Source: an uncultured Opitutia bacterium (GTDB lineage: Bacteria; Verrucomicrobiota; Verrucomicrobiia; Opitutales; Opitutaceae). Taken from it: a stretch of 64,000 nucleotides of DNA. This document shows positions 37,581-53,176 of the stretch, one piece after another. The first letter of the stretch is position 1, and every line of letters begins with the position of its first letter. The translations under genes were made by a program, and so were the position numbers. Under the pieces are notes generated by a model, which searched no databases, had not been told where the DNA came from, and saw only the letters and a list, made by a program, of their open reading frames with translations. The stretch covers positions 1-64,000 of the forward strand of contig CAIQKV010000069.1 of NCBI GenBank assembly GCA_903872505.1, given 5' to 3'.

Positions 37581-40500
37581 TCATTTCAACTGGTCGTCGG
37601 GCAGGCCCAGTTCTTTGCGAAACGCCGCCCAGCGCGGGTCGGAATGGAGCGATGCGTACAAGGGATCCAGCTCGAGCTCGATCAGTCCGCTGTCGCGCTG
37701 CTTTCGGGCCCGCGCAAGCCACTCGAAGGCGCGATCTAGGTCACCCCGGTAGGCATGGATCTCCGCGATCTGGTAGGCGGCGGTACCCGCGCCGATGGCG
37801 ACGAGACGGTCCAACGCGGCATCGGACTCCGGCCGCCGTTGCTGGCTCCAACGAGCACAGGCGATGATCAACAATTGCGCATATTCCGCCGACTCATCCC
37901 GGACGGCGGCCAAGGCGTCGTCGTAGCGATGTTGCAGCAGGTAACCCAAAGCCAAGCCAGCGTGGGCCCAGGGCACGGCGGAATTCAACGCCACCACTCG
38001 CGGAAACTCGGCTTCGGCCTCGGCGTAGTGGCCGCTGGTCACCAATTGGAGGGCGAGATAAGACCGGGCCGTCGGATTGACCGGGTCGACGGCCACCGCC
38101 TGGCGAAAGCAGGCCAGCGTTTCGTCATTGTCGCCGATGGCCGCCGCCACGTTGCCCGCGGCAAGGAGGAGAGCGGGATCCGCCGGCGCCTTCGCGCGCG
38201 CCTTCCGGAGCGTCTCGCCCGCGGCTTGCCAATCGAAGTCCACGTTGAGCTGGATCAGCGACTTCGCCAGCAGGCTCTCCGCCATTTCGGGCTCGAGCGC
38301 CATCGCCTGCGCCACAGCGACGCGGGCCTTGGCCAGGTGATTGTCGAACCCCACCCGCCCCAGCTCGGTCGAAAATGAGCAGAACCACAGGTGGGTCTGG
38401 GCCAGCCCCGCCCACGCCAGGGCAAAGCCCGGGTCGAGTTCCACCGCCCGCTGGAAGTGGGCCTGCGCCTGGACCATTTCCTTTTCGGAATGCCGGTTGG
38501 CGAAAAACTTGCCCTGGAGGTGCTCCTGGTAGGCCTCCGGCACCTTGGTCCCGCCCTTCACCGCCGCCTTCACCGTCGCGGCGCTCTCCTCGCCGGCCAG
38601 CTGGCCGCGCAGCTCGCCGAGGATGGCCACGGCGAGTTCCTCCTGCAGCGCAAAGACGTCCTTCAGCTCGCGCGTGTAGCTCTCGGACCAGCGCTCCTCG
38701 CCCGTGGCGGCGCGGCTGAGCCGCGCCGTAACCTTCACCCGGTTGCCGGATTTCTGCACGCTGCCCTCGACGAGATTCGCCACTCCCAGCTTGGCGCCAA
38801 TTTCCTGTGCCGTGGCTTCCTTCCCCTTGAAGGAAAACGCCGACGTCCGCGCCGCCACATGCAGCCCGGGGATCTTCTGCAGCACCGTCAGCAGCTCCTC
38901 GCTGATGCCGTCCGAGAAGTATTCGTTGCCCTTGTCGTCAGAGAGGTTCGCGAACGCCAGCACGGCGACGGATTTGGGGTCGACGCTGGGCGCGGGCAAG
39001 GCCGCGGCCGGGCCGCCGCCGGCCCGGAGTTCCGCGAGCTGGGCCTCCCCCTTGGTGACGATGGCCTGGAAGCGCGGATCCGCGCGGAGGGAATCGAACT
39101 CCGGCTCGTAGCGCAGATGGTTCACCATGATGGGCCAGCGGGACTTGCCCCGGTCGATGCCGCGCTCGGCGGCCGCCATGGCTCCGTCGTTCGATCCGGT
39201 CAGGATGAGGAGTTCCGCATTCGGGAAGGGCGAGACCTTGGGGCCGACCAGTTCCCGGAGGACCCGTATCACCTGTTCCGCCTCGGCTTTTTGCCCGAGC
39301 CGCGCGAGCAGCCGGACTTTCTCATAGAGATACTTGGGGTTGTTCGGTTCCGGGACCAGGCGGTCATTGACCGCCTTCAGGCCGGCCGCGAACGCGCCCT
39401 TCGCCGCCTCGGCGTGCCCGGCCAGCAACTGGGCGCAACCCGCCAGATAATCCGTGGACACAAACAGCGACCCCTGCTCGATGAACGGACGCGGGAAGCG
39501 TTGCAAAACCTCCAGCGCCCGATCGGGCTGCCGCGACCAATACCAGGTGAGGTAGGCCAGCATCGCCACGCGATCCTCCTGCAGGAGCGAGGCGGGCATC
39601 TGCTCCACCCACGCGCGGCCGGCCGGCAGGTCGCCCCACCCCCACACCAACAACATGAGTTTGTAGTGGCACGCCAACGCCGTCGTCCGCTGGGCCAGCG
39701 ATTGCTCGAGCGTCGCCGCCATCTGCGGGTAATTATTTTGGCTCCAGTAGATTCCCAGGCGGAAGTTCAAGGACTCGGGATCGCCGCCAGGGAGGGCAAT
39801 CGCCCGGTCAACCCATTGTTGCGATTCCTCGAAGTGGCCCTGCCTCATCGCCACGAACTGCAGCAGATGAAACACCCGCCGGTCGTTTGGCACCCGGGCC
39901 AGCAGGGTTTCCAGCGAATGCTCCACCTCTGCCAGCCGGCTGCCGGTCATGATATCGACCGTGGCCAGGGCGAGCGCCGCCTCCACGGAATCGGGCGCGA
40001 GCCGGATCGCACTCTCGGCCCGGCTGCGGGCCGCGACGATGCTGGCGGGAGACTGGTCCTGATATTCCCAGATCAACTGGCATGACGCGCGGGCCGTGAC
40101 CGCATAGGCGTCCGCGTCGCCGGGATCGAGGTCAATGGCCCGCTCGCCCAGCCGTTTCGCGGTCAGATAGTTTTCCCGCACCGCCAGCGGATCATCGTCA
40201 ATCAGCGCCCGCGCCTGGTTCGCCAGCTTGCGCGCCGCGGAGACGGGAGCATCGGCCTCAGCCTTGGCGGCGGGCTTGGACTTGCTGCGCTCCGGCTGCC
40301 ACATCGGCCGCAACCCGTAGAATAGCGCGAGGGTGATCCCGACGGCCGCCCAGGCATAGCGCAGCCAGACGGGCCGATGAGCATTCCTTGGAGACGCGGC
40401 GCCCTCGCCGCGTTCTGCGGGACGAGGGCGTCCCGCCTCCGGTGAATCTCCGCTGAGCAATTTCGCCACGCGGTTGGCAAACGCCGGAGTCGTCTCCCCC

Positions 40501-40880
40501 GCCGGTAATCGCGTCCACTGCACCTCGGTGAACGAGTCTGGCACATGCGCGTCGGCGTCGCGGGTATCATCGATCACGACGGGTAGCAGGAACGGCCGGC
40601 CCTTCGCCATCAGGTGCGTGCGCTGGTCCGCCAGCCGCCACTCCAGCCGGAAATACCCCTCGGTTCGCGCCTGCGTGGCCGCCGAGATGATCGGGATCAG
40701 CAGCGCGCACTCCTTGATCTGCCGCCGGATCTTGTGATCCCACGCGTCGCCGCCGACCAGCTCGCTCTGGTCGAACCACACCTCCACGCCCGCCGCCCGC
40801 AGCGCATCCGCGATGCGCTTCGCCGCCGCGGCATCCTGCGACGCGTAGCTCAGAAAAACAGCTTTGGTGGCGTCACCCAT
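37581..40880 (-). CDS. TIR - TPR - TolB-like - TPR protein (1099 residues)
   Basis: Domain order: TIR about 5-145 with FLSYASQD, WFDQSELVGGDAW and the catalytic-type Glu80 in GYFRLEWRLADQ; a linker coded by a palindromic repeat (about 148-165); a membrane helix 172-193; TPR-like repeats about 210-610; a TolB-like domain 636-757 (SVAVLAFANLSDDKGNEYFS; VANLVEGSVQKSGNRVKV); and C-terminal TPRs about 770-1095. TIR domains cleave NAD or make cyclic ADP-ribose signals. Its TIR and C-terminus are closely similar to those of the 42753-44627 gene. It is the last gene of the island operon, starting 1 bp after the glycosidase stop. Immune or signalling role is inference. Confidence 0.88.
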   Translation of the reverse strand: MGDATKAVFLSYASQDAAAAKRIADALRAAGVEVWFDQSELVGGDAWDHKIRRQIKECALLIPIISAATQARTEGYFRLEWRLADQRTHLMAKGRPFLLPVVIDDTRDADAHVPDSFTEVQWTRLPAGETTPAFANRVAKLLSGDSPEAGRPRPAERGEGAASPRNAHRPVWLRYAWAAVGITLALFYGLRPMWQPERSKSKPAAKAEADAPVSAARKLANQARALIDDDPLAVRENYLTAKRLGERAIDLDPGDADAYAVTARASCQLIWEYQDQSPASIVAARSRAESAIRLAPDSVEAALALATVDIMTGSRLAEVEHSLETLLARVPNDRRVFHLLQFVAMRQGHFEESQQWVDRAIALPGGDPESLNFRLGIYWSQNNYPQMAATLEQSLAQRTTALACHYKLMLLVWGWGDLPAGRAWVEQMPASLLQEDRVAMLAYLTWYWSRQPDRALEVLQRFPRPFIEQGSLFVSTDYLAGCAQLLAGHAEAAKGAFAAGLKAVNDRLVPEPNNPKYLYEKVRLLARLGQKAEAEQVIRVLRELVGPKVSPFPNAELLILTGSNDGAMAAAERGIDRGKSRWPIMVNHLRYEPEFDSLRADPRFQAIVTKGEAQLAELRAGGGPAAALPAPSVDPKSVAVLAFANLSDDKGNEYFSDGISEELLTVLQKIPGLHVAARTSAFSFKGKEATAQEIGAKLGVANLVEGSVQKSGNRVKVTARLSRAATGEERWSESYTRELKDVFALQEELAVAILGELRGQLAGEESAATVKAAVKGGTKVPEAYQEHLQGKFFANRHSEKEMVQAQAHFQRAVELDPGFALAWAGLAQTHLWFCSFSTELGRVGFDNHLAKARVAVAQAMALEPEMAESLLAKSLIQLNVDFDWQAAGETLRKARAKAPADPALLLAAGNVAAAIGDNDETLACFRQAVAVDPVNPTARSYLALQLVTSGHYAEAEAEFPRVVALNSAVPWAHAGLALGYLLQHRYDDALAAVRDESAEYAQLLIIACARWSQQRRPESDAALDRLVAIGAGTAAYQIAEIHAYRGDLDRAFEWLARARKQRDSGLIELELDPLYASLHSDPRWAAFRKELGLPDDQLK
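40396..40437. repeat. Palindrome pair inserted in frame inside the TIR gene
   Basis: CGCGGCG-CCCT-CGCCGCG (40396-40413) and GCGGGACG-AGGG-CGTCCCGC (40418-40437) encode the linker between the TIR domain and the membrane helix. The upstream flank TTGGAGACGCGGCGCCCT resembles TTGGAGCCGCGGCGCCCT at 61167-61184. The insertion keeps the frame. Confidence 0.8.
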
Positions 40881-40881
40881 G

Positions 40882-42684
40882 TCAGCGCTTCGGCTCCGGC
40901 GTGCACTCGAACACCAGCACCTCGAACGGCCGTAGTGAAATTGTCACCGGCTCACCCGCGCGCACGGCGGTCATCGGCGCGGGGGCGTCGGCGTAGGGGC
41001 TCTGGACGCGGAACGTGCCGATGGCGCCGGCGGGCAGCTCGAACGCCGTGCCCGCCTCGAAGGTAAACGTCGCGGGCCGGTCGGAGGGATTGCGCAGGGT
41101 CACGATGCCCTTGGCTGGCGACCATGCCGCCCAGCCGTAGGCCTCAAGCTTGTAGGGGTCGCCGCCGAGCCAGTGCACGTCGCACAGCGTGGCGGAGTTC
41201 GCGCGCGACCATTTCGCGGCCGCGGCGAGGTCGTCCCAGTTCCTGGGTGTGAGCAACTCGGGCGAGAGATACATCTCCTGCAGCTGCGTGCCGCAGCCAA
41301 AATACGTCCGCACCTCGCTCCCAAAGTCGCCGCCCAGGTCCGTGCGCAGCTGCTCCGGCCGGACCGCGTAGAGCAGCCCGTGGATCATCAGCGAATTGAG
41401 CGGATAGAGCGGCCCGCGGCGGACCACGTTCTGGTAGGTCTCGGCATCGCGGTAAGTGATCCACCGCTGCCGGTTCGTGCCCACGCCGGCGAAGCCGTGG
41501 TCCGAGCCCTCGCGCCAGATGTTGTCGACATGGAACAGCCACCACGGCGACGGGAAAGTGCCCGTGGTCTGGCTGATGTAGATGTCCGGCCGCAGCGCCC
41601 GCAGGTCATGGACGAGTCGCAGCATCGCGTCGAAATCCCGGCCCGCGGCCGGGTCGATCCGGCCGGTCTCCGCGATCGAGCCGATGCCGTCGAACTTGAA
41701 ATACGCCACACCGCTGTCGCGGACCACGTCCATGCAGAGCCCGCTGAAGCGCGCGTAGTACTTCGGCCCGGCCAGCGAGAAGTTGTTGTCGCGCGTCTCG
41801 AACCCCTGCGGCGCGGCGGCGGCCATGCGCGCGTCGTGGGCCTTGCTGTAGCCGCCCCACGGCGAGAGCCAGATCCCCGGCGCGGCGCCGTAGCGGGCCG
41901 CGGCGGCGGTGACGTTCCTCAGGCCGACCGGCCAGCCCGCATGAAACCGCCACAGCGAGTGCACGTCGTCCCAACCGTCATCGAGCACGAAGCCGTCGAG
42001 CTTGACGCCGCGCTTCTCGACCAGCTCGCGGCCGAAGAAGGCGACATCGCCCAAGACTTCGGCCTCGGTGAATTTCCGGCCGCAGCCGAGATTGTACCAG
42101 TTGTTGTGGTGGAGGAACGGCTGGTACGGCCGGGCGCGCTCGCGCTCGACATAGGCGAGGAAGTCGCGCCGCAGCTGGCCGGGCCGGTAGGTGCCCTCGA
42201 CGAGCGACACGGTCACGGTCTCGCCGGGACGCAACGGTTGCATCAGCGGCAGCGCGCAGCGCACGCGGCCGTCGGCCACGCGGTTGTCCGCCAGCGGATG
42301 CTCCACGCCGAGGAACCGGCGTCCGGTCACCACGGGCGAGCCGCTGAATTCACCGACCACCTTTGCCGAGCCGTCGTCCAGCGTGGCCGCGGGCGCATCG
42401 AGCAGCACGATGCGCGCGAGCGCCAGGTCCGCGCCGCTGGTGTTGGTCACCGTCACGAAGGTCCGCGTGTAACCGGCCCCGGCGGGCGCCGCCACCCGGC
42501 GCGTGGCGGAAAAACGCCCGGCGGCGTCAGCCAGGTTCTCGCCCGCCGCGGTGGGCGGCAGCGCGCGCAGCTCCGACGACGCGACGGACTTGCCGTCCGC
42601 CAGTTCGACGAAAAACGGCGCCGGCGTATCCGCCGCCCGGCCCGTCACCACTAATCCGCACACGAGCAGAAGGATACTTTTCAT
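40882..42684 (-). CDS. Secreted GH36-like glycoside hydrolase (alpha-galactosidase-type)
   Basis: A 600-residue protein with a signal peptide (MKSILLLVCGLVVTGRA), an N-terminal beta region (about 20-180), a TIM barrel with HHNNWYNLG, GFVLDDGWDD and APGIWLSPWGGY, and a C-terminal beta-sandwich. The GH36-type nucleophile is Asp332 in AYFKFDGIG, and the acid/base is probably Asp395 in REGSDHGF. Related proteins are often mislabelled enterotoxin. It should cleave alpha-galactosyl or similar bonds in the periplasm or outside. It lies in the middle of the TIR operon: 68 bp after one TIR gene and 1 bp before the next. Confidence 0.87.
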   Translation of the reverse strand: MKSILLLVCGLVVTGRAADTPAPFFVELADGKSVASSELRALPPTAAGENLADAAGRFSATRRVAAPAGAGYTRTFVTVTNTSGADLALARIVLLDAPAATLDDGSAKVVGEFSGSPVVTGRRFLGVEHPLADNRVADGRVRCALPLMQPLRPGETVTVSLVEGTYRPGQLRRDFLAYVERERARPYQPFLHHNNWYNLGCGRKFTEAEVLGDVAFFGRELVEKRGVKLDGFVLDDGWDDVHSLWRFHAGWPVGLRNVTAAAARYGAAPGIWLSPWGGYSKAHDARMAAAAPQGFETRDNNFSLAGPKYYARFSGLCMDVVRDSGVAYFKFDGIGSIAETGRIDPAAGRDFDAMLRLVHDLRALRPDIYISQTTGTFPSPWWLFHVDNIWREGSDHGFAGVGTNRQRWITYRDAETYQNVVRRGPLYPLNSLMIHGLLYAVRPEQLRTDLGGDFGSEVRTYFGCGTQLQEMYLSPELLTPRNWDDLAAAAKWSRANSATLCDVHWLGGDPYKLEAYGWAAWSPAKGIVTLRNPSDRPATFTFEAGTAFELPAGAIGTFRVQSPYADAPAPMTAVRAGEPVTISLRPFEVLVFECTPEPKR

Positions 42685-42752: not shown

Positions 42753-44627
42753 TCATGCCAGCTGGTCGTCCGCCAGATTCAGTTTTCGCAGGAACGGCAG
42801 CCAGCGCGGGTCGGCGTGCAGTTTGCGCATGAGCGGATCGCATTTCAGCAGCACCGTCCCGGAGTCCCGCACCCGGTAGGCCTCGTCCAGCCACTGGAAG
42901 GCCTGGTCCACCTCGCCGCGGAAGGCATAGACCTGGGCCACCTGGTAGGCGGCGTGGGTGCCGTCCTTCACCTTCAATTCCACTAGGGCCGCCTCCGAAT
43001 CCTCGATCCGTCCCTGGGCAAAGCGCGCGCACGCCAGCGCCGTCCGCCGCGCCCAGCCGGGCGGCACTTCCTCCGCGGCCCGGGCGGCCTCGTCGATCCG
43101 TCCTTGGAACAGCCGGGCCAAAAACAGGAAGAGCCGGCTGCGCAACCCGGCGGGATTGATCGAGATCACCCGCTCCGCCTGCTTCTCCATTTCCTCAAAG
43201 CGCCCCGCGAAGCCCAGGCTGCGGACGAGGGTATAGGTGGAAAAATAGTTGAGCGGGTCAAGTTCCACGGCCTGACGCGCGAGCCGGATGGCCTCGTCGC
43301 ACCGCCCCATGATTCCGGCTAGGTGCGCCACCATGCTCCGGGTCTCCACGTCGCCCGGCGTGAGCTCCGACGCCCGCGCGAGCAGGGCGGCCGCCTGTTT
43401 CCAGTCCCAACCGTGCATCAGTTCCTCGAAGCCCAGGGCAAAGTGACCCTTGGCCAGCTCCGGATCCAGGGCGATCGCCCTCTGCGCCGCCTCACGGGCT
43501 AGGCGGTTGCCGGCCTCGATCGAATACATGCCGGATCCGGCGGACATGCAGTAGACCAACGCCAGCCAGGCCCAGGTGAGTGCGCAACCTTCGTCAATCG
43601 CGATGGACGCCTGGTAGCACTCGATCGCCTTGGCGTATTCGTCGGGCACCTCGCGGTTGAAGATCGCCCGGCCCTGCAGGAACAGCTGGTAAGCCTCGGG
43701 ATTCACCGCCCGCGCCGCGGAGGTGGCGCCCAGCTTGAGCGAGAGCGCCTGGGCGATGAGCCCGGCGATCTCGTCCTGCACCGCGAAGATGTCCTTCAGG
43801 TCCCGGGTGAAGGTGTCGGACCAGACATGGAACCCGTCGGCGGCCTTGATCAGCTGCGCGGTGATACGGACGCGATCGCCCGCCTTGCGCACGCTGCCCT
43901 CGACGACGTAGGCGACGCCGAGCTGCCGCGCGATCTCCGGGATGGGCGTGTCCTTGCCCTTGAAATGAAACGCCGAGGTCCGCGCCGACACCTTCAATCC
44001 CTTCACCTTGGCCAGCACGTTCAGCAGTTCCTCGCTGATGCCGTCGGAAAAATACTCGTTTTCCTTGTCGTTGCTCAGGTTGGCGAAGGCCAGCACCGCC
44101 ACAGAATGACCCTCTGTTGACCGGGTGGCGGCCATCGCCTGGGCCATCGGCTGGCCGACTGACCGGTTCTTTTCGCCGGACTCCGGGCCCGGAGTGGACG
44201 ACTCGCCCGGCAGCAGGCGCTTGACCCGTTCCACGAACGCCGGCGGGGTTTCGCCGCCGGGCAGCCGCGTCCATTGCACCGCGGTGAACGAATCCGGGGC
44301 GTCCGCATTGGCATCCGGCGTCTGGTCCACGCAAACCGGGACGAGGAACGCGCGGTTGCGGCCCATCAGGTGCGTGCGCTGGTCGGCCAGCCGCCACTCG
44401 AGCCGGAAATAGCCTTCGGGCCGCGCCTGGGTGTTCGCCGAGATGATCGGCAGAAACAGCGCGCACTCCTTGATCTGCCGGCGGATCTTCTGGTCCCATG
44501 CGTCGCCGCCCCGCAGCTCGCTCTGGTCGAACCACGCCTCGATGCCCGCCGCACGCAGCGCCTCGGCGATCCGGCGTGCGGCGTCGGCGTCCTGGGAAGC
44601 GTAGGAAAGGAAAACGGCTCCGGGCAT
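42753..44627 (-). CDS. TIR - TolB-like - TPR protein (624 residues)
   Basis: TIR domain about 3-140 (FLSYASQD, WFDQSELRGGDAW, catalytic-type Glu77 in GYFRLEWRLADQ), a short linker without an obvious membrane helix, a TolB-like domain about 182-305 (SVAVLAFANLSNDKENEYFS), and TPR-like repeats to the end (about 315-620), finishing PRWLPFLRKLNLADDQLA. The start at 44627 (MPGAVFLSYASQD) begins right at the TIR domain. TIR and C-terminus are close paralogues of the 37581-40880 protein. It starts 13 bp after the nSTAND stop, so it is in the same operon. Confidence 0.9.
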   Translation of the reverse strand: MPGAVFLSYASQDADAARRIAEALRAAGIEAWFDQSELRGGDAWDQKIRRQIKECALFLPIISANTQARPEGYFRLEWRLADQRTHLMGRNRAFLVPVCVDQTPDANADAPDSFTAVQWTRLPGGETPPAFVERVKRLLPGESSTPGPESGEKNRSVGQPMAQAMAATRSTEGHSVAVLAFANLSNDKENEYFSDGISEELLNVLAKVKGLKVSARTSAFHFKGKDTPIPEIARQLGVAYVVEGSVRKAGDRVRITAQLIKAADGFHVWSDTFTRDLKDIFAVQDEIAGLIAQALSLKLGATSAARAVNPEAYQLFLQGRAIFNREVPDEYAKAIECYQASIAIDEGCALTWAWLALVYCMSAGSGMYSIEAGNRLAREAAQRAIALDPELAKGHFALGFEELMHGWDWKQAAALLARASELTPGDVETRSMVAHLAGIMGRCDEAIRLARQAVELDPLNYFSTYTLVRSLGFAGRFEEMEKQAERVISINPAGLRSRLFLFLARLFQGRIDEAARAAEEVPPGWARRTALACARFAQGRIEDSEAALVELKVKDGTHAAYQVAQVYAFRGEVDQAFQWLDEAYRVRDSGTVLLKCDPLMRKLHADPRWLPFLRKLNLADDQLA

Positions 44628-44640
44628 GGTGCGCGCCGGT

Positions 44641-47600
44641 TCAGCCGCCCGGGGTGGCCCGGGCAGCCGCGATCCAGCCGGCCAGCTCGAGGTTGTCGAC
44701 GTATTGCCCGACACCGCCGGTCAGGCCCCCCAGCGCCTTGTCCGCCTCGTCGAGCAGCGACTGGCGCTGCTCGCGTCCCGCGGCGTCGTCCGCCTGGGCG
44801 AGGGCACAGGCGTAGAGGGCATGGGCATAAGCCGGCAGGAACTCGTTGTCATCGGCGCCATGGGCGTACTCCTTGCGATAGTACGCCATCGCCGGCTCCA
44901 GCAGCGTGCGAGCTTCCGCTCCCCGCCCCTGCCGCGCGACGGCGCGGGCGAGGCGCACCCGGTTCCAGGCATCGTCGGCCACGGGGTCACCTTCGCGGTT
45001 CGGGTTCATCGGGATCTCGCGCAGGCGGCGCGCCGTGGATTCCGCCAGGGCAAAATCTCCCTGGTGAAAGGCGGCCGTCGAGGCCAGGCCGAGGGCGCTC
45101 CGGGTGATGTTGTGATGCATCTGCTGTGCGCTGCGGTTCGCCGCCGGGACCTTGAGCTTGGCCAAACGGTCCACCGCGGCCATGGCTCCCGTCACCACCT
45201 TCTGGTCCTCGCCCAGGAGCCGCTGGTACCGGAGGTCCTGCAACGCGATCACCTCGGTGGCCATCTGGCGCTCGACGCCGCCCTCCGGGAACTGCTTCAC
45301 CCACTCACGCGTGGTCCGCTGGGTTTCCGCGAGCGCGTGCTCGGCCGCGGCCCGGTGCCCGGCCTGCGCCTCCCAGTTGAGCATCTCGGCCCAATAAAAA
45401 TTCATCTGACCCGCCAGGCTGGACGGCCGGCGCGGGTCGTTTTCCAGCGCGACCAAGGAATACACCTTGGCCAGCGCCTCGCTGACCCGACCCCGCTCGT
45501 ACATCAGGAACGCCAGCTGGGCGCGCGCACGCAGCCACATGTTCCACACGGTGATGTCGGACGGATTCGAGCGCACATACTCCTCGCCGGCCCGCTCGCC
45601 CTTGAGGGCGTAATCCAGCGCCTCGGCATAGTCGTGGCGGCGTTCCGCCAGCGTCCCGAGCAGGTCCGCTGCCAGGGTGCGGTTGAGCATGGAGCGCAGG
45701 TCACCCGGCCGTTGCACGAGGACCTTCTCGGCCATCTCGTACACCTCGCGCTCGAGCTGCTCGGCCTGGTCGATCCGGCCCAGCACCAGGGCATGGCGGG
45801 CCTCCGAATCCGTGGTGTCGCCGTAGGCCGACGCGGCGTTGAGATCCGACAGGTCCAAGGCGCCGAGTCCGACGAGGATGGCGCGGGCCTCCTCGCAGTT
45901 CGCGATCCCGTCCTCCTTCTTCACTTGAAAATGGCTGTAGACATTCAGGATGTCGACATACACGCGCCGCGCCTGGCGGGAGGCGTCCGGCTTTTTCACC
46001 AGCGGGCGCAGCAGGCCGGCCGCCCGCTCCAGGTCGGCGGGATTTTGCATGCCCGTGCCCATCATTTGCCCGGACTTGGTGAAGAGCGCCAGGGCCAGGC
46101 CGATGGTCGTGGCCTCGCTTTGGTCGCCCTCCGCCCGCAGTTGCTCAAACACCTGCCGGGCCTCATCGAGGAGTCGGGTGGCCTTGGGAATGTCGCCCCG
46201 GCCCATCTCGGCCGCGCCCTGCCGGACGAGGGCCATGCCGCGGTAGAGGCGGGTGGACGGCGTGAGCAGCTCGGCCGGCAGCCCGTCGTAGTAGGCGACC
46301 GCCTGCTGGGCGAGCTTGCCCATCGTGTCGAGCCGGCCGGTCGGCTCGAGTTCCAGGTAGAAATCCTCGATCAGAAACCCGACCAGCTTTTCCGCCTCGG
46401 TCCGGGCACGCTCGGCCATCTGGCGGGTGGCCAGCGCCTGGGCCTCGGCCACGCGGGCCCGGCGGAGATTGACGAAGCCGAACACGGCGCTGCCCGCCGC
46501 CGCCAGCATCAGCACGCTGGCCACGGCGGCCACAACCCGCGCGCGCAGCAGTGCCCGGCGGGTTGCAATCTCGCGCTCCTGCTGGAGCGCCAGCTGGCGC
46601 TTGGATTCCTCGAGGGCCTCGCGCTCGTGCCGCACGGAGCGGCTGGCGCCGACGACGCTGCAGAGCACGTCGTGCGTGATCTCGACGCGCCGCAGGTCCA
46701 GCCGGTCCTCCACGCGCAGCAACCGGCGATCCACCAGCTTCGCCAGGGCGTCGGGGGCGGCGCCGGCGGCGACAAAGGCCTTCCGCACGCGCTCCTCGGC
46801 CACGCTCTCACGGTAGCCGGACTCCGTCAGCATCTCGTCCTCGATGAAGATGCGCACGCCGGCCGGCTGGTCCGCCAGGGCGCGCTCGTAGAACTCGGTC
46901 AGGATGGTGTCGCGCGAGCCTTCCAGCAGGTGGGCGGAAATCTCGGCCTGGCCCTGCGCCAGCCGGGTGTTGTTCAGCTCGCGGCAGATCAGGCTGAGCA
47001 GCGACGGCTCGACCTCGGCGTGCGCAAGGTCCGCGCCGCCGGCGACGAACCGCACCACCGCCTCGGCCACGGCCTCGCCCACCAGGTGCGGCGCGGGGGC
47101 GCGCACCGCGGCCACCGCCTGCGCCCCGGTCATGCGCGCCAGGCGCATGCGGTTCTGTGTGACGGAGGGCATCTGCCCCTTCAGCCCCTCGAGGTGCGCG
47201 AGGTAGTCCTCGCGCAGCGAGATCAGGATGCGGTAGTCCGCGCGGGCGAAGTCGAACTTGGAGGCATCGGCCTCGTCCCGGTCGATCCGCGCCTCGAGCG
47301 CGACCGGCGGGCGGTTCTCCACCAGGTCGGCGAGGTCCGCGAGGAACTCCTGCGCCCGGCGCCGGCCGGCGTCGTCGGATTGCGCGAGGGTGAAGATCTC
47401 CTCGAACTGGTCGAAGATCAGGATCGGGATGAGCGTGCGGCCGCTCGCGTCCTTCAGCACGTCGTCGCGATGGTGCAGGAACTCCCACAGCGTCTCGCCG
47501 CTCACGGCCGAGCCGGTCCGGGTCCAGGCGCCGGCGGCCTCCGTCGCACGGAACACCGCGCGCTTGATCTGCTCCGCGGGCGGCGGTGACGCCGGGTCGT

Positions 47601-47862
47601 AGTCGAGCCGCACGTAGACGGGGCAGAAGCCCTCGGGCCGGAGCCGCGGGACGAGGCCCGCCTGCAGGATCGAGGTTTTGCCGAGGCCGGACTGGCCGAA
47701 CAGGATGGTGAGCAGCTTGCGCTGCACGCGCCGGCCGAGCTCGGCGGCCTCCTCCTCGCGGCCGTGGAAGTAGCCGCGGGTCTCCTCGGTGAAGGAGACG
47801 AGGCCGAGCCACGGGTGTTGTTCGTCGACCGTGGCGACGGGGGCGGGGGCGGAGGGCTTCAT
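44641..47862 (-). CDS. nSTAND-type NTPase with TPR-like C-terminus
   Basis: A 1073-residue protein. Residues about 15-430 are a STAND NTPase of the nSTAND1 type: HPWLGLVSFTEETRGYFHGR, Walker A FGQSGLGKTS (55-64), Walker B PILIFDQFEEIFTL, then a winged-helix region ending in EITHDVLC. A membrane helix (about 440-465, VVAAVASVLMLAAAGSAVFG) separates it from a helical TPR-like region (about 500-1070). STAND proteins are ligand-triggered ATPase switches, common in bacterial immunity. The start at 47862 overlaps the SIR2-TIR stop as ATGA, so translation is coupled. The open frame continues upstream but that part is a shadow. Confidence 0.9.
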   Translation of the reverse strand: MKPSAPAPVATVDEQHPWLGLVSFTEETRGYFHGREEEAAELGRRVQRKLLTILFGQSGLGKTSILQAGLVPRLRPEGFCPVYVRLDYDPASPPPAEQIKRAVFRATEAAGAWTRTGSAVSGETLWEFLHHRDDVLKDASGRTLIPILIFDQFEEIFTLAQSDDAGRRRAQEFLADLADLVENRPPVALEARIDRDEADASKFDFARADYRILISLREDYLAHLEGLKGQMPSVTQNRMRLARMTGAQAVAAVRAPAPHLVGEAVAEAVVRFVAGGADLAHAEVEPSLLSLICRELNNTRLAQGQAEISAHLLEGSRDTILTEFYERALADQPAGVRIFIEDEMLTESGYRESVAEERVRKAFVAAGAAPDALAKLVDRRLLRVEDRLDLRRVEITHDVLCSVVGASRSVRHEREALEESKRQLALQQEREIATRRALLRARVVAAVASVLMLAAAGSAVFGFVNLRRARVAEAQALATRQMAERARTEAEKLVGFLIEDFYLELEPTGRLDTMGKLAQQAVAYYDGLPAELLTPSTRLYRGMALVRQGAAEMGRGDIPKATRLLDEARQVFEQLRAEGDQSEATTIGLALALFTKSGQMMGTGMQNPADLERAAGLLRPLVKKPDASRQARRVYVDILNVYSHFQVKKEDGIANCEEARAILVGLGALDLSDLNAASAYGDTTDSEARHALVLGRIDQAEQLEREVYEMAEKVLVQRPGDLRSMLNRTLAADLLGTLAERRHDYAEALDYALKGERAGEEYVRSNPSDITVWNMWLRARAQLAFLMYERGRVSEALAKVYSLVALENDPRRPSSLAGQMNFYWAEMLNWEAQAGHRAAAEHALAETQRTTREWVKQFPEGGVERQMATEVIALQDLRYQRLLGEDQKVVTGAMAAVDRLAKLKVPAANRSAQQMHHNITRSALGLASTAAFHQGDFALAESTARRLREIPMNPNREGDPVADDAWNRVRLARAVARQGRGAEARTLLEPAMAYYRKEYAHGADDNEFLPAYAHALYACALAQADDAAGREQRQSLLDEADKALGGLTGGVGQYVDNLELAGWIAAARATPGG

Positions 47863-49250
47863 GCGCGGCGGGAGTTGAAAAGGTCCTGGAGCCGGCGGGT
47901 GAATTCCGCCGGGGGGGCGCCCCCGGGCAGCCGCGCGAAGTGCATGGCCTTGAATTTCTCGGGGGCCACGGCATCGGCCTCGGTCGTGCCGTCGATGCAG
48001 ACCGGCAGGATGAACACCGCGCCGTCCGCCATGCCGCGCGTGCGGTCCACGGCGTAGCTCCACTCGCGGCGGAAATACCCCTCGTGCCGCCGCTGCGTGG
48101 TGGCGGAGATGACGGGCACGAAGTACGAACACCGCGCGATGTTGCCGCGGATCTTGCGGTCGTAGTCGTCGCCGCTCTCGAGCCGGTCGAGGTCGAACCA
48201 GGTGGTGATGCCGGCGGCGTCGAGGCCGGCCTTGAGCTTCTGGACCGCGGGCAGGTCCTCGCGGGCGTAGCTGATGAACACCGCGTTCTCCGGCATCTCG
48301 CGCGCCGGCGGCAGGAACCGCACCGGCGCCGCGGAGCCGCCCGCGGGCGCGGCGCCCGCGCGGCGGGCCGTCCAGCGGCGGTGCAGCTCGGCGACGAACT
48401 CCTCCGCGCCGGAAAACATCCGGGTGCGCACGCTGACCTGCTGCAGGAACGACACGAGCCGCACGTCGGTCAGGCTGTGGCTGTCGGCCAGGATCTCGCC
48501 CACGTCGCGCGGGTCGGACAGCCGGCGGCGCTTGGTCATGCGCAGGAACAGCCGCGCGAGCCAGTTGGAGAAATCGCTGCCGATCACGAGCAGGTGGTTG
48601 TGTTCGAGCGCGTGGAACAGCTTCTCCGGCGTGAGGTGCTCGCTCTGCAGCGCGCAGACGAACTCGAGCATGTCCTCGTCGGAGATCACGTAGGTCGGCG
48701 ACGCCGACAGGCGGCCGAGCAGGTGGTAGACGACGGGGCGCTGCAGGTCGTCGCGCTCGACGGGCAGGTCGGCCACGCGGTTGGGCGCGTAGGCAATGAC
48801 CTCGGTGTTGGCGGCGCCGCCGAAGCGGACCTGGTTGATCGCCAGCTCGAGCAGCGGGTCGAACGTCATCGAGACGTAGAGGTTGAAATCCGTGATCTCC
48901 GCGAGCTGCCGCAGCGGCAGCGGCGGGTCGAAGGCCGCCTCGCGCATGATGGTGCGGAGCCGGGTGTAGGCCTCCTCGCGCCGGCCGTGGCCGGTCAGGT
49001 AGCTGCAGACGACGTCGTTCAGCGTGAGCGGCCGGGGGAGCGGCCCGGCCTCGACGCCGAGGCGCGCGGCCAGCTTCTCGGCCAGCCACTCCAGTAGGAG
49101 CTGCGGCCCGTTCTCCGTCTGCACCTTGAGCAGCTCGGGGCCGATGATGGGGATGACGCGCTTCTCCTCGATGTAGTTGAGCAGGTCCTCCCACACGTCG
49201 TCGCTGAACAGCGTGGCGGGGGCGGAATCGTCGGCGGTTTCGGGATTCAT
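47859..49250 (-). CDS. SIR2-like - TIR fusion protein
   Basis: A 463-residue protein. Residues about 15-290 resemble a SIR2-like domain: RVIPIIGPELL, VSMTFDPLLE (at the place of the usual TNYD), PVVYHLLGR (His176), and LLVIGSDFSNWLARLFLR, as in SIR2_2-type immune proteins. Residues about 322-460 are a TIR domain: NAVFISYARED, WFDLDRLESGDDYDRKI and catalytic-type Glu396 in GYFRREWSYA. The SIR2 catalytic Asn seems replaced by Thr129, so only the TIR may be enzymatic. Start at 49250. It overlaps the nSTAND gene by 4 bp; the two proteins probably act together. Confidence 0.85.
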   Translation of the reverse strand: MNPETADDSAPATLFSDDVWEDLLNYIEEKRVIPIIGPELLKVQTENGPQLLLEWLAEKLAARLGVEAGPLPRPLTLNDVVCSYLTGHGRREEAYTRLRTIMREAAFDPPLPLRQLAEITDFNLYVSMTFDPLLELAINQVRFGGAANTEVIAYAPNRVADLPVERDDLQRPVVYHLLGRLSASPTYVISDEDMLEFVCALQSEHLTPEKLFHALEHNHLLVIGSDFSNWLARLFLRMTKRRRLSDPRDVGEILADSHSLTDVRLVSFLQQVSVRTRMFSGAEEFVAELHRRWTARRAGAAPAGGSAAPVRFLPPAREMPENAVFISYAREDLPAVQKLKAGLDAAGITTWFDLDRLESGDDYDRKIRGNIARCSYFVPVISATTQRRHEGYFRREWSYAVDRTRGMADGAVFILPVCIDGTTEADAVAPEKFKAMHFARLPGGAPPAEFTRRLQDLFNSRRA

Positions 49251-49276: not shown

Positions 49277-51601
49277 TCAGAGCAGCGGGGCGTTGTTCTT
49301 CGGATCGTTCACCAGCGTCTCGAAGCGCGGGTCGCCCCGCAGCGGAAACCACGAGGCCCCGGCCTTCGCCGTGTAGATGTTCTCGCCCCGGGGCGTGCGC
49401 AGCAGCCGGGCGAGTTCGGCCAGCGCGCGGTCCTTGTCGCCCAGCCAGGCCAGGCACACCGCGTAATTAAAGGTGTAGTTTGGCCCGAAGATCGCGTCCT
49501 TCGACTCGGGCACGAGGTCGATGGCCTTTTGCGCGCAGCGCAACGACTCCGCGCGCTCGCCGAGCATCGCATAGGCCAGGCCGAGGTTGGTCCAAAGGAT
49601 TTCGTTCGTTGGTTGTTTTTCGAGCTGAGACTTGAGGTCGCTCACCGCCTCCGCGGCGCGTGTGCGTGCGACCGCTTGGTCGCCCATGGCGGCCAACACG
49701 AACGCCGCGGTCGTGTCCTGGATACCCTTCGCCTCGCCAAACGTGTCCGCGTAGCGCAGCTGGCGGTCGAGGGCCACGTACCCGGCAAAATCGCCAATCT
49801 GCAGGGCCCAGGCCTTGCGCAGATAGATCATGGTCGGCGTGCCCGCCTGCTCCGGCGAGATCCGGGCCAGCCACTCCTCCCCTTCCTTCGTCGAACCCGT
49901 GGCCGCAAACGGAATCAAGGGTATTTGCGCCTCCGCCGTGGGTTCATGGTCGGCCAGCTCGGCCGCCCGCCGCATCATCGGCAGGGCCTCGTCGTAGAGG
50001 CAGAGAAATTCCGCCGTCTCCGCCAGCGAACGCACGTAGCGCAGACTGCGCGGCTCGAGCTGCACGGCGCGCCGGAATTCGCCCATCGCCTCCTTGAACC
50101 GGCCCTGCCGGCGGTGGATGAGGGCGAGCGAGCCGTAGACCGCCCCGTCATTGGGCCGCAGCACGGCGAGCCGCTCGTATTGCTCGACCGCACGCGTGTA
50201 GTCGCGATAGCCGTAATAATAATAATCGCCGAGATTCTCGATCACCTCCGGCGCGTCGGGCGCGAGACGCACCGCCGTGTCGATCACCGCCTTGGCCCTG
50301 GCCAGCCGCCCCGCCGTGTGGTCGTTCCCGCCGAAATACTGGAAGGCATGAAGGGAGCCCAAGGCGGCCCATGCGGCCGCAAATTTCGGATCGAGTTGCA
50401 CGGCCTGCTGCAGCAACCGCTCGCTTTCGTTGAGGTCCTTGCTGTTGACGCTGCCCGATAGCTGCCGCGCCTTCACGTAGGCGTCGTAAGCGGCGAGGCT
50501 TTCGGTCGGGCGGCGCTCCAGCAGCGATTTCTCCTCGGGCGAAAGCGCGGCGGCCAGCGCCCCGGCGATTGCCTGCGACAGCTCGGCCTGAATCCCAAAG
50601 ATGTCCGTGATGTCCCGGTCGTAGGCCTTGGCCCATACATGCTCGTCGGTCCGGGCGTTGATCAGCTGGCCGGTGACGCGCACCTTGCTGCCGGCTCGGC
50701 GCACGCTGCCCTCGAGCACGTAGGCCACGCCCAGTTCCTCGCCGATCTGGCGGATCGGCTTGGTTGTGCCCCGGTACTGCATGACCGAGGTGCGCGAGAC
50801 GACGTGCAGTTGGCGGACGAGCGCGAGGTTCGTGAGGATGTCCTCGTGGATGCCGTCGGCGAAGAAGCCGCTGTCCTTCTCCTCGCTCATGTTGTTGAAC
50901 GGCAGGACCGCGATGGATTTTTCGGAAATGACGGGCGTGACCGGCGCGGCGACTGCGGCCGGTTTTGGCGCGGGGGCCGGGGCGGGAACGGGTGCGGGCG
51001 GCTCGCTTCGGCGGCCAACCGTGAGCGCGACCCCGACACCGACCACGACCGCAATGAGGGCACCCCAGGCCCAGCCGGGGAGGCCGGACTTGGCTGCAGC
51101 CGCCGGCAGCGCATGGGCGGCCGGGGCGGATTTCTTGGCCGGCGTAGCCTTGGCCGGGCGCTCCAGCAGCCGCTTGACGTGCTCGACAAACTGCGGCGTC
51201 GGCATGCCGTGCGCCAGCCGGGTCCACTGCACGCGCATGAATTCCTCCGGCACGAGCGCCTCGGACTCCGCCGTGTCATCGCTCACCACCGGCAGCAAAA
51301 AGGCCACGCCGGCGGCCATGTCGTGGGTGCGCTCGACGGCGAGCTTCCACTCCCGGCGGAAGTAGCCCTCGCCGCGCGCCTGGGTGTTTTCCGAAATGAT
51401 GGCCACAAACAACGAACAGGTGCGAATCTGGGTGCGGATCTTGGCGTCCCACGAATCCCCGCCCCGGAGCTCATTCTGGTCGAACCACACCTCCAGGCCG
51501 AAGGCGCGCAGGGCATCGGCCAATCGGCGGGCCACGTCGGAATCTTCGCGGGAATAGCTGAGGAATACGGCGCCCGGCGGGGCGGAGGGGGAATCCGGCA
51601 T
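49277..51601 (-). CDS. TIR - membrane helix - TolB-like - TPR protein (774 residues)
   Basis: TIR about 9-150 (FLSYSREDSDVARRLADA, WFDQNELRGGDSW, Glu84 in GYFRREWKLAVE), one membrane helix about 172-193 (WAWGALIAVVVGVGVALTVG), a Pro/Ala linker, a TolB-like domain about 228-350 (SIAVLPFNNMSEEKDSGFFA; YVLEGSVRRAGSKVRVTGQL), and about ten TPR-like repeats to the end. The TIR would be cytoplasmic and the TolB-like/TPR part on the other face if the helix spans. It is the first gene of the island operon. The ATG at 51601 is preceded by AGGTGA at 6 nt, a good ribosome site. It is more divergent from the other two TIR-TolB proteins than they are from each other. Confidence 0.9.
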   Translation of the reverse strand: MPDSPSAPPGAVFLSYSREDSDVARRLADALRAFGLEVWFDQNELRGGDSWDAKIRTQIRTCSLFVAIISENTQARGEGYFRREWKLAVERTHDMAAGVAFLLPVVSDDTAESEALVPEEFMRVQWTRLAHGMPTPQFVEHVKRLLERPAKATPAKKSAPAAHALPAAAAKSGLPGWAWGALIAVVVGVGVALTVGRRSEPPAPVPAPAPAPKPAAVAAPVTPVISEKSIAVLPFNNMSEEKDSGFFADGIHEDILTNLALVRQLHVVSRTSVMQYRGTTKPIRQIGEELGVAYVLEGSVRRAGSKVRVTGQLINARTDEHVWAKAYDRDITDIFGIQAELSQAIAGALAAALSPEEKSLLERRPTESLAAYDAYVKARQLSGSVNSKDLNESERLLQQAVQLDPKFAAAWAALGSLHAFQYFGGNDHTAGRLARAKAVIDTAVRLAPDAPEVIENLGDYYYYGYRDYTRAVEQYERLAVLRPNDGAVYGSLALIHRRQGRFKEAMGEFRRAVQLEPRSLRYVRSLAETAEFLCLYDEALPMMRRAAELADHEPTAEAQIPLIPFAATGSTKEGEEWLARISPEQAGTPTMIYLRKAWALQIGDFAGYVALDRQLRYADTFGEAKGIQDTTAAFVLAAMGDQAVARTRAAEAVSDLKSQLEKQPTNEILWTNLGLAYAMLGERAESLRCAQKAIDLVPESKDAIFGPNYTFNYAVCLAWLGDKDRALAELARLLRTPRGENIYTAKAGASWFPLRGDPRFETLVNDPKNNAPLL

Positions 51602-51688
51602 AAAACGTCACCTAATATGCTAGTTAAGCTTAGACCTTGCCAGCTCAAATCCCCGCTGACACCCGTTTTGCACGACTTTTTCGGCCGA
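51602..51688. promoter_or_regulatory. Divergent promoter region of the TIR island
   Basis: This 87-bp gap separates the first TIR gene (leftward) from the SLOG gene (rightward), so one small region controls both. On the minus strand TTGAGC, 16 bp, TAACTA is a possible promoter for the TIR operon. The region is AT-richer than its surroundings. Confidence 0.45.
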
Positions 51689-53176
51689 ATGCCCCTGCCC
51701 GCCACCACCGCCAGCCAGCTGCCCCTGTTCCATGTCGTCGGATTTTCCGGCCACCGGCAGCTCCCGGATGCCGCCGGCACCGCCCGGGCCGTGACCCGCG
51801 CGCTGGAGTCCCTCCGGCAGGAGGCGACCGGCGAATGGGTGGCGCTCTCGTCCGTCGCCACGGGCGGCGACCTGCTGTTTGTGGCGCAGGCGCGGGCGCT
51901 CGGCCTGTCGTGGCACGCCATCCTGCCGCTGCCGAAGGCGGAGTTCGCCAGTGATTTCACCGCGGCGGAATGGGCCACGACCGAGGAGACGCTGAAGCAG
52001 GCGGAGCATGTGCGCATCATCACGGAGAACGGCTCGCGCGAGGACGCCTACCTCGACTGCGGCATGGAGACGGTCAACGGGGCCGACTTGCTGCTCGCGG
52101 TCTGGGACGGCCAGCCAGCCCGGGGCCGCGGCGGCACCGCCGAGGTGGTGGAATACGCCCGCTCCCTCGGCAAGCCGCTCATCGTGATCAACCCCGACAC
52201 GATGGAAACCCGGCGGGAAAATTTTCCCCAGCTCGCGCGGGCCGACGCCAGCCTCACCTACCTCAACCGCCTCCCGGCGGCCCCGGACGGCGGGGCCAAT
52301 CCCTTCAAGGCGCCGGACTTCATTTTCGCCTTCCAGAAGAAGGCGGACTACGCCGCCAGCCACGGGGCGCCCCAGTTCCGCCGGCTCATCGTCTCCACCG
52401 TGCTGCTGCACGTCGTCGCCACGATCGTCGCCGGCGCGGCGCTGGCCTTCGACCTGCACCTCGGCGCGCTGCCGTGGGTCAAGCTGCTCTGCCTCATCGG
52501 CGCGCTCGGGGTGGCGCTGGTCCTGCGGTACCACCACTCGCACCACAACTGGGTGCGCTGCCGCCTCGCCGCCGAGTTCTGCCGCTCGGCCCTCGCCACG
52601 TGGGGCCTGCCGCGCGCCGCCCCGCTGTTCCAGGACCTGGACCTGCCCGGCGTGCACGCGCTGACCCGCTCGCTCCACATCCTGCACAGCCGTTCCGCCA
52701 ACGCCCAGCCGATCCCCATGGCGGAATTCAAGCGCACCTACCTGGAAAAACGCATCGACGACCAGCTCGCGTACTACCAGCGGCAGGAGTCGCGCTCGCT
52801 GCCGCAGTTCACCCGGCTCAAGCTGGGCTTCTGGATCGCGACCATCCTGGCGCTCTCAAGCACCCTGGCCTACGCCGTCTGCCACACCATGGAGGTGGAG
52901 ACGCCCCACTGGGTCACGACCACGGTGTTTTATTTCCTCCCGATCGCGCTGCCCGTCGTGGCCGCCGCCTTCATCTCGCTGATCTCGATCAACGACCTCC
53001 AGCGGCGCGTGGCCCGCTACCGGGAGATGCGCGCCACGCTGGAGGACAGCCGCAAGCAGGTCGCCTTCTGCCAGACGTGGAACAGCCTCGAGCGCATCGT
53101 CCTCAAGACCGAGCGCGCCCTGCTGCAGGAGGTGATCGAGTGGCACTCGATCACGAGCTTCACCGAGTCGCACTGA
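51689..53176 (+). CDS. SLOG domain - four-helix membrane protein (SLATT-like)
   Basis: A 495-residue protein. Residues about 12-195 form a SLOG/LOG-type Rossmann domain: FHVVGFSGHRQLPD, SSVATGGDLLFVAQA, and WDGQPARGRGGTAEVVEYAR. Residues about 230-495 hold two pairs of membrane helices (233-253, 262-280; 379-397, 410-434), with WVRCRLAAEFCRSALATW after the first pair, as in SLATT effectors. SLOG domains in Thoeris ThsA bind TIR-made cyclic ADP-ribose. This protein may sense such a signal and act on the membrane; that is inference. ATG at 51689 chosen, since earlier frame overlaps the TIR gene. Confidence 0.82.
   Translation: MPLPATTASQLPLFHVVGFSGHRQLPDAAGTARAVTRALESLRQEATGEWVALSSVATGGDLLFVAQARALGLSWHAILPLPKAEFASDFTAAEWATTEETLKQAEHVRIITENGSREDAYLDCGMETVNGADLLLAVWDGQPARGRGGTAEVVEYARSLGKPLIVINPDTMETRRENFPQLARADASLTYLNRLPAAPDGGANPFKAPDFIFAFQKKADYAASHGAPQFRRLIVSTVLLHVVATIVAGAALAFDLHLGALPWVKLLCLIGALGVALVLRYHHSHHNWVRCRLAAEFCRSALATWGLPRAAPLFQDLDLPGVHALTRSLHILHSRSANAQPIPMAEFKRTYLEKRIDDQLAYYQRQESRSLPQFTRLKLGFWIATILALSSTLAYAVCHTMEVETPHWVTTTVFYFLPIALPVVAAAFISLISINDLQRRVARYREMRATLEDSRKQVAFCQTWNSLERIVLKTERALLQEVIEWHSITSFTESH

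What the first reader, a model, noticed from the sequence alone, without database searches (positions are those of the whole stretch)
47859..49250. SIR2-like-TIR fusion with the SIR2 catalytic Asn apparently lost
The protein joins two domains that both can consume NAD. The TIR keeps its Glu (Glu396), but the SIR2 motif that normally reads TNYD is MTFD (Thr129 at the Asn place), while the HLxG histidine (His176) remains. This suggests the SIR2 part has become a sensor or scaffold and the TIR is the effector, the reverse of many SIR2 immune proteins.
Basis: partly seen in the sequence, partly recalled or inferred. Interest (0 to 1): 0.68.

Follow-up and report, generated by a model that had tools for sequence, protein, structure and literature searches.

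The report
Dead sirtuin domain steering TIR effector
A bacterial protein joins a sirtuin-like domain that has lost its catalytic residues to an intact-looking TIR domain and sits beside a gene for a membrane-spanning ATPase sensor, which suggests that a dead enzyme was reused as the connector of an immune receptor.

Summary
The protein is real: 463 aa, minus strand 47859-49250, SIR2-like plus TIR. The claim that the SIR2 histidine remains is wrong: His176 aligns with the Lys of KLHG, and the catalytic His place is Leu178. The NAD-loop GAGxS is lost too (GPELL). In 119 distinct relatives none has the Asn (T114, S4, G1) or the His (L95, F12, M12), while 114 keep the TIR Glu; the five exceptions have a broken, cut or replaced TIR. 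The dead domain is as conserved as the TIR (mean identity to the window 78% and 76%). Its ATPase part is 78% identical, its C-terminal sensor 32%, with one predicted TM segment between. One relative carries a nucleotide cyclase instead of the TIR; in another locus a separate dead SIR2-like gene lies between CHAT and nSTAND1 genes. Best reading: a two-gene receptor/effector cassette in which the pseudosirtuin is adaptor or scaffold and the TIR the output. No function was tested. New variant of STAND/TIR immunity.

The parts
47859..49250 (-). SIR2-like-TIR fusion gene, 463 aa, ATG at 49250, stop at 47859-47861
   Evidence: full-length relatives L034 and L039 start at the same codon
48357..49208 (-). 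SIR2-like pseudo-catalytic domain, residues 15-298
   Evidence: SIR2_2 hit; VIA-align Z 16-18 to SIR2 domains of SPARSA, KomC, DSR2 and Avs5
49128..49142 (-). GPELL (residues 37-41) in place of the NAD-loop motif GAGxS
48864..48866 (-). Thr129 codon at the place of the catalytic Asn (TTNYD reads SMTFD)
48714..48725 (-). HLLG (residues 176-179) in place of KLHG: Leu178 at the catalytic His place, His176 at the Lys place
47862..48290 (-). TIR domain, residues 321-463
   Evidence: TIR_2 66.2 bits; VIA-align Z 15.6 to the SPARTA TIR 8ifl, rmsd 2.6 over 133
48063..48065 (-). Glu396 codon, putative TIR catalytic Glu
44641..47862 (-). nSTAND1 ATPase with C-terminal TPR solenoid (1073 aa), ATG overlapping the SIR2-TIR stop by 4 bp; proposed sensor partner
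   Evidence: nSTAND1 113 bits; Walker A GQSGLGKT and B LIFDQFEE; AlphaFold2 model pLDDT 81
46489..46554 (-). single hydrophobic segment of the nSTAND1 protein, residues 437-458, between ATPase and sensor
   Evidence: hydropathy only
49277..51601 (-). TIR-TM-TPR gene 26 bp upstream, same strand; not conserved with the pair outside Opitutaceae-type loci
42753..44714 (-). TIR-TPR gene downstream of nSTAND1 (true start probably inside, after the nSTAND1 stop)

Best explanation
The protein is the effector half of a two-gene STAND receptor system. The nSTAND1 protein keeps its ATPase in the cytoplasm and, through one membrane segment, holds a fast-evolving repeat domain (TPR here) probably outside the inner membrane. 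Ligand binding there is proposed to trigger ATP-driven oligomerisation. The N-terminal SIR2-like domain of the partner, no longer an NADase, docks on that assembly and/or forms the multimers or filaments that SIR2 folds are known for, and so clusters the C-terminal TIR domains. The clustered TIR then cleaves NAD+ (depletion and growth arrest, or a nucleotide signal). Shown here: motif losses, conservation of the dead domain, retention of the TIR Glu, gene pairing, constant ATPase with variable sensor, predicted folds. Inferred: immunity as the role, physical contact, topology, TIR activity, the clustering step.
For: Asn, His and NAD loop lost in 119 of 119, 119 of 119 and nearly all members (GxG loop reads G-P/A/Q/S), confirmed by two alignment methods. 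The dead domain is as conserved as the TIR (77.7% and 76.0% mean identity to the window, n = 74). TIR Glu kept in 114 of 119; exceptions are an in-frame stop (L036), frameshifts (L101, L195), a cut TIR (L158) and the cyclase (L050). nSTAND1 gene follows in 77 of 80 loci; 56 of the 71 starts measured overlap by 4 bp. It also follows at 29% (L157) and 33% identity (L032). The nSTAND1 domain starts at residue 16-28 in the proteins scanned, leaving no room for an effector domain of its own. Identity to the window, 47 paired loci: SIR2 78.1, TIR 75.9, ATPase 77.6, sensor 31.8%. Sensors differ between relatives: TPR, WD40, WD40+TPR, WD40+FGE. Effector swap: L050 has the pseudosirtuin with a class III cyclase (PF00211, E 4.4e-9; PycC 1.6e-6) beside nSTAND1. 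Separate pseudo-SIR2-like gene between CHAT and nSTAND1 in L225. Fold neighbours include filament formers ThsA, KomC, Avs5, FAM118B. Patchy: 48 of 252 Opitutaceae genomes, 5 of 12 in the window's genus.
Against: No experiment. One locus with 1933 bp of room (L091) has no nSTAND1 partner. The cyclase swap is one contig of one MAG; L174 is the same contig. The pseudo-SIR2 of L225 is only a weak relative (20.3 bits to A1; 24.7 bits to SIR2_2). No PADLOC model names either gene as a system (the TIR part alone matches TIR effectors), no phage-defence test, and no relative in phage records at E 1e-3. Topology rests on hydropathy and K/R counts; one of ten further proteins shows no segment. AlphaFold2 pLDDT for SIR2-TIR is only 74 and pTM 0.57.
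Confidence: 0.58

Rival explanations
1. The pseudosirtuin is a ligand-binding regulator: its worn NAD pocket binds NAD+, ADP-ribose or the TIR product without cleaving it and holds the TIR off or on, much as the ARM domain regulates SARM1 (recalled). nSTAND1 is then only one input.
For: Fold kept and pocket-side residues remain fixed, e.g. D131 in 118, G179 and D193 in 119, H176 in 116 of 119. An invariant His next to the old active site is hard to explain by scaffolding alone.
Against: The Gly-rich NAD loop is lost, and the partner gene is nearly always present, which points to protein contact. Not exclusive with the main reading.
Confidence: 0.2
2. The output is a nucleotide second messenger rather than NAD+ depletion: TIR makes a cADPR-type signal, the cyclase variant a cNMP, read by a receptor encoded elsewhere (in the window perhaps the neighbouring TIR-TPR or SLATT-type proteins).
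For: TIR and class III cyclase, both able to make nucleotide signals, replace each other on the same pseudosirtuin. SLATT_1 and SLATT_3 hits in the window's next gene on the other strand.
Against: In the three isolate loci looked at (L061, L074, L076) the pair stands alone between genes that look like housekeeping genes, with no obvious third gene (names recalled). One swap only.
Confidence: 0.14
3. The SIR2-like domain is still catalytic, with another residue doing the work of the Asn or His (for example Thr129 with His176).
For: Thr129 and His176 are nearly invariant (114 and 116 of 119).
Against: All defining motifs are lost together. Asn or His changes abolish activity or immunity in Avs5 and FAM118 (passages of PMC12931631 and PMC12700824).
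Confidence: 0.04
4. The pair is not immunity but a housekeeping or developmental membrane signalling system of these soil and water bacteria.
For: No phage-defence data; no defence-database system match; no phage or viral relatives.
Against: Patchy spread, sensor diverging far faster than the engine, sister sequences in several phyla, and in the window several TIR-TPR genes and a SLATT-type gene nearby.
Confidence: 0.15

Closest known systems
Thoeris (ThsA SIR2-SLOG effector plus ThsB TIR)
   Same: Uses SIR2 and TIR domains; the SIR2 fold of ThsA is among the nearest structures (8bto, 8btp, 7uxt)
   Different: There SIR2 is the NADase and TIR makes the signal, on two proteins; here SIR2 is dead, TIR is fused to it, no SLOG domain was found, and the partner is nSTAND1
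Avs5 (AVAST type 5, SIR2-nSTAND3-repeats)
   Same: SIR2-type domain coupled to a STAND ATPase with C-terminal repeats
   Different: One protein with an active SIR2 (GAGxS and TTNxD kept, N110A kills function; passages of PMC12931631) and nSTAND3; here the ATPase is a separate nSTAND1 gene and the SIR2 is dead
nSTAND1 conflict systems with EAD adaptors (Kaur 2021, Vallota-Eastman 2024)
   Same: nSTAND1 ATPase, variable C-terminal sensor (WD40, FGE), effector in a separate gene joined by a shared adaptor domain
   Different: The adaptor place is taken by a pseudosirtuin; the passages seen name TIR, caspase and trypsin effectors and EADs, and one list of effectors with SIR2 for a different (EAD10/GreA-PIN) system, no SIR2-TIR fusion
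SPARTA / SPARSA (TIR-APAZ or SIR2-APAZ with short pAgo)
   Same: TIR nearest to the SPARTA TIR (8ifl Z 15.6), SIR2 near the SPARSA SIR2 (8y80 Z 18.1)
   Different: No APAZ and no Argonaute found beside it
FAM118A/B vertebrate sirtuins
   Same: SIR2 fold of the immune type (9r3e Z 15.3), filament formation linked to activity
   Different: FAM118 keeps the active-site Asn and His (passages) and has no TIR

Membership tests
SIR2_2 (PF13289) SIR2-like domain | profile score above the curated cut-off | tested here: met
   30.6 bits against 24.5
SIR2 NADase (catalytic) | GAGxS, TTNxD Asn and LHG His | tested here: not met
   GPELL, T129, L178; 0 of 119 members have the Asn, 0 of 119 the His
TIR domain, NADase type | TIR_2 profile and catalytic Glu | tested here: met
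   66.2 bits; Glu396 in 114 of 119, the other five lacking an intact TIR
TIR domain, NADase type | NAD+ cleavage in vitro | not testable with these tools
   needs a bench assay
STAND ATPase, nSTAND1 (PF20703), partner gene | nSTAND1 profile with Walker A and B | tested here: met
   113 bits; Walker A GQSGLGKT in 70 of 72 and LIFDQFEE in 72 of 72 proteins in which the pattern search found a Walker A
Thoeris | ThsA: SIR2 plus SLOG; separate ThsB TIR gene | tested here: not met
   SIR2 and TIR fused, no SLOG/STALD match at E 1; SIR2 motifs lost
Avs5 / AVAST type 5 | SIR2-nSTAND3 in one polypeptide with active SIR2 | tested here: not met
   ATPase is a separate nSTAND1 gene; SIR2 dead
SPARTA / SPARSA | APAZ domain and adjacent short pAgo | tested here: not met
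   no such match in the four neighbouring proteins scanned; wider surroundings not scanned for pAgo
Phage defence system | protects a host against phage | not testable with these tools
   needs a plaque assay

The most novel reading that the evidence does not exclude
A pseudosirtuin serves as a general adaptor that couples membrane-spanning STAND receptors, with their repeat sensors outside the cell membrane, to exchangeable cytoplasmic effectors (TIR as a rule, a Pycsar-like cyclase in L050, a CHAT protease in trans in L225): a bacterial receptor scheme like Toll-like receptors in layout, with a dead NADase in the place of the adaptor.
Probability: 0.35. Interest if true: 0.82.

Novelty: new variant of a known kind. 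Interest (0 to 1): 0.66.

Why it matters
Immune SIR2 domains are known as NADases. Here a whole family, in Verrucomicrobiota, Pseudomonadota and one record labelled Mycobacteriaceae, has kept a catalytically dead SIR2 domain as strictly as the active-looking TIR beside it. That is good evidence that the fold has a second job. It is the mirror image of animal TIR adaptors, which mostly scaffold. The constant engine with a fast-diverging sensor beyond a predicted membrane segment makes the question of outside-facing bacterial STAND receptors directly testable with two genes.

Tried and rejected
His176 as the retained catalytic His: rejected by two alignment methods. Restoration of the motif by a neighbouring Asn: no Asn at residues 127-131 in any of 119 members. 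Sequence search against solved structures: phmmer and profile found only TIR matches, no SIR2 match; the SIR2 relation to solved structures rests on Pfam, hhalign and the predicted fold. Residue-level superposition on the catalytic site could not be done, since no tool gives model coordinates; the site assignment rests on sequence alignment. A wider source of relatives: phages and viral contigs gave none; plasmids gave one full-length record, whose annotation is empty. Foldseek on the nSTAND1 model returned TPR solenoids, no STAND chain among the 50 rows shown; this says nothing against STAND. Transfer between phyla: the quick tree does not separate the phyla, but most rows are MAGs and the tool warns that this is no proof. 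The gene at 40882-42650 was considered as a system part and set aside: no Pfam match, looks like a secreted glycosidase (recalled). The Methylacidiphilum-like pseudo-SIR2 group (L120 and kin) was set aside: its one neighbourhood looked at (L226) has no nSTAND1-like gene by eye.

Full report
What is there. The window (an Opitutaceae genome by its nearest relatives) encodes on the minus strand at 47859-49250 a 463-residue protein with a SIR2-like domain (SIR2_2, 30.6 bits) and a C-terminal TIR domain (TIR_2, 66.2 bits). It lies 26 bp after a TIR-TPR gene (49277-51601), and its stop overlaps by 4 bp the start of a 1073-residue nSTAND1 ATPase with TPR repeats (44641-47862).

Motifs. Against SIR2_2 proteins with canonical motifs from the same class of bacteria, MAFFT and hhalign (97.2% probability, E 3.4e-11) agree. 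GAGxS reads GPELL; TTNYD reads SMTFD, with Thr129 on the Asn; KLHG reads HLLG, with His176 on the Lys and Leu178 on the catalytic His; GFSFxDPN reads GSDFSNW. The Glu claim is right: Glu396 aligns with the Glu of other TIRs.

Family. One scan of 84,980 species genomes with the SIR2 part confirmed 154 relatives, of which the best 80 were kept: Opitutaceae, Gamma- and Betaproteobacteria, and one record labelled Mycobacteriaceae; most are MAGs, but Lysobacter profundi, Lysobacter telluris and Rhodanobacter sp. B05 are isolates by their titles. In the window's family 48 of 252 genomes have it (34 of 165 good-quality ones), 5 of 12 in the same genus, and some genomes carry many copies. With these copies, a Paraburkholderia megaplasmid (L032, 33% identity) and two other Verrucomicrobiota (L157, L158), 119 distinct sequences were aligned (80 + window + L032 + 35 + 2). 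Place 129 is T 114, S 4, G 1; place 178 is L 95, F 12, M 12; His176 is H in 116. The TIR Glu is E in 114. The exceptions are L036 (in-frame stop), L101 and L195 (frameshifts), L158 (TIR cut off, next ORF transposase-like by eye) and L050 (no TIR). The SIR2-like domain is as conserved as the TIR: 77.7% and 76.0% mean identity to the window over 74 sequences. A merely decaying domain would not behave so.

Partner. nSTAND1 follows in 77 of 80 loci. L037 and L068 have under 100 bp left; L091 has 1933 bp and no partner. In 71 loci the start lies within 300 bp, in 56 with the 4-bp overlap; five more lie some 460-530 bp away. Among the Opitutaceae copies, those without a match have under 430 bp left or are fragments. 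L157 (29% identity) and L032 also have it. The ATPase domain starts at residues 16-28 in the proteins scanned, so an effector domain is not built in. Walker A and B are intact. Over 47 paired loci, mean identities to the window are SIR2 78.1, TIR 75.9, ATPase 77.6, sensor 31.8%. All 64 nSTAND1 proteins over 540 aa have one hydrophobic segment between ATPase and sensor; K/R are commoner on its N side in 56 and rarer in 2; nine of ten more distant partners have it as well, L208 does not. Sensors are TPR, WD40, WD40 with TPR, WD40 with FGE, or without Pfam match. AlphaFold2 gives the ATPase/winged-helix part and a confident TPR solenoid (pLDDT 81), though its first 60 residues are poor.

Fold. 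The model of SIR2-TIR (pLDDT 74, pTM 0.57) matches SIR2 domains of immune proteins: SPARSA 8y80 Z 18.1 (rmsd 3.6, 259 aligned), KomC 9xvc 17.6 (3.7, 249), DSR2 8wy9 17.4 (4.3, 259), Avs5 9jap 16.1 (4.9, 261), FAM118B 9r3e 15.3 (4.5, 261); ThsA 18.7 over both halves at rmsd 16.9. The TIR matches SPARTA 8ifl 15.6 (2.6, 133). Several of these are helical assemblies.

Effector exchange. L050 (one Opitutaceae MAG contig; L174 is the same contig) has the pseudosirtuin at 75% identity fused to a class III cyclase (PF00211, E 4.4e-9), which also hits PycC (1.6e-6), and still overlaps an nSTAND1 gene at 67% identity. In L225 a separate SIR2-like protein with the same losses (L125) stands between a CHAT gene and an nSTAND1 gene with a caspase gene beyond; its kinship is weak (20.3 bits). 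Both point to the SIR2-like domain as the constant link and the enzyme as exchangeable, but each is a single case.

Mechanism. The best-supported reading is a two-gene receptor. nSTAND1 senses through its variable C-terminal part, probably outside the membrane, and assembles with ATP; the pseudosirtuin docks and/or multimerises; the clustered TIR cleaves NAD+. Only anatomy and conservation are shown; the rest is inference. Rivals are a ligand-binding regulatory pocket, a messenger output, residual SIR2 catalysis and a non-immune role.

Known systems. It is not Thoeris, Avs5, SPARTA/SPARSA or a DSR protein (membership table). Passages on nSTAND1 systems in PMC8195603, PMC10907252 and on related systems in PMC7159879, on Avs5 in PMC12931631, FAM118 in PMC12700824 and a review PMC10952713 mention no SIR2-TIR fusion; PMC10907252 does propose periplasmic sensing for some STAND proteins. 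Searches of open papers listed none on a dead SIR2 adaptor; only listings were seen there, subscription papers are mostly missing, and PMC7685563 was not held.

Setting. In L074 the pair lies just before a tRNA-Gly/Cys cluster and in L076 beside tRNA-Lys (2 of 7 loci tested); in the isolate loci it stands among genes that look like housekeeping ones (names recalled). This fits a self-contained, moving cassette.

Noticed in passing
window 51671-53176 (+): Divergent gene after the TIR-TPR gene with two SLATT-type matches (SLATT_1, SLATT_3) and an N-terminal part that looks SLOG-like (recalled): perhaps another nucleotide-signal defence gene.
   Followed up: partly
window 37581-40880, 42753-44714, 49277-51601 (-): Three TIR-TPR genes around the pair; similar TIR-TPR tandem arrays occur in related Opitutaceae loci such as G154 and L034.
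   Followed up: partly
window 40882-42650 (-): Conserved protein (82% identical in L033, also hit in L039) between TIR genes, no Pfam match at E 0.01; by eye a secreted glycosidase. Odd place for it.
   Followed up: partly
L050:5756-7267: Pseudosirtuin fused to a class III nucleotide cyclase instead of TIR; Asp, Asn and Arg motifs of the cyclase look intact (roles recalled).
   Followed up: partly
L225:5118-14924 (G334): CHAT gene, separate SIR2-like gene without the catalytic residues, nSTAND1 with peptidoglycan-binding domain at its C-terminus, caspase gene: a possible related four-gene system.
   Followed up: partly
L120-L124, L139-L152, L226 (one 2.2-2.5 Mb Verrucomicrobiota family): Another SIR2-like group with GPG, VDVWYD and KPLG in place of the catalytic motifs, free-standing, in many genomes of one family; in L226 among genes that look metabolic.
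   Followed up: partly
L067, L078 (Betaproteobacteria): The longest ORF over the SIR2-TIR gene is about 1,120 aa; probably an open frame extension, not examined.
   Followed up: no
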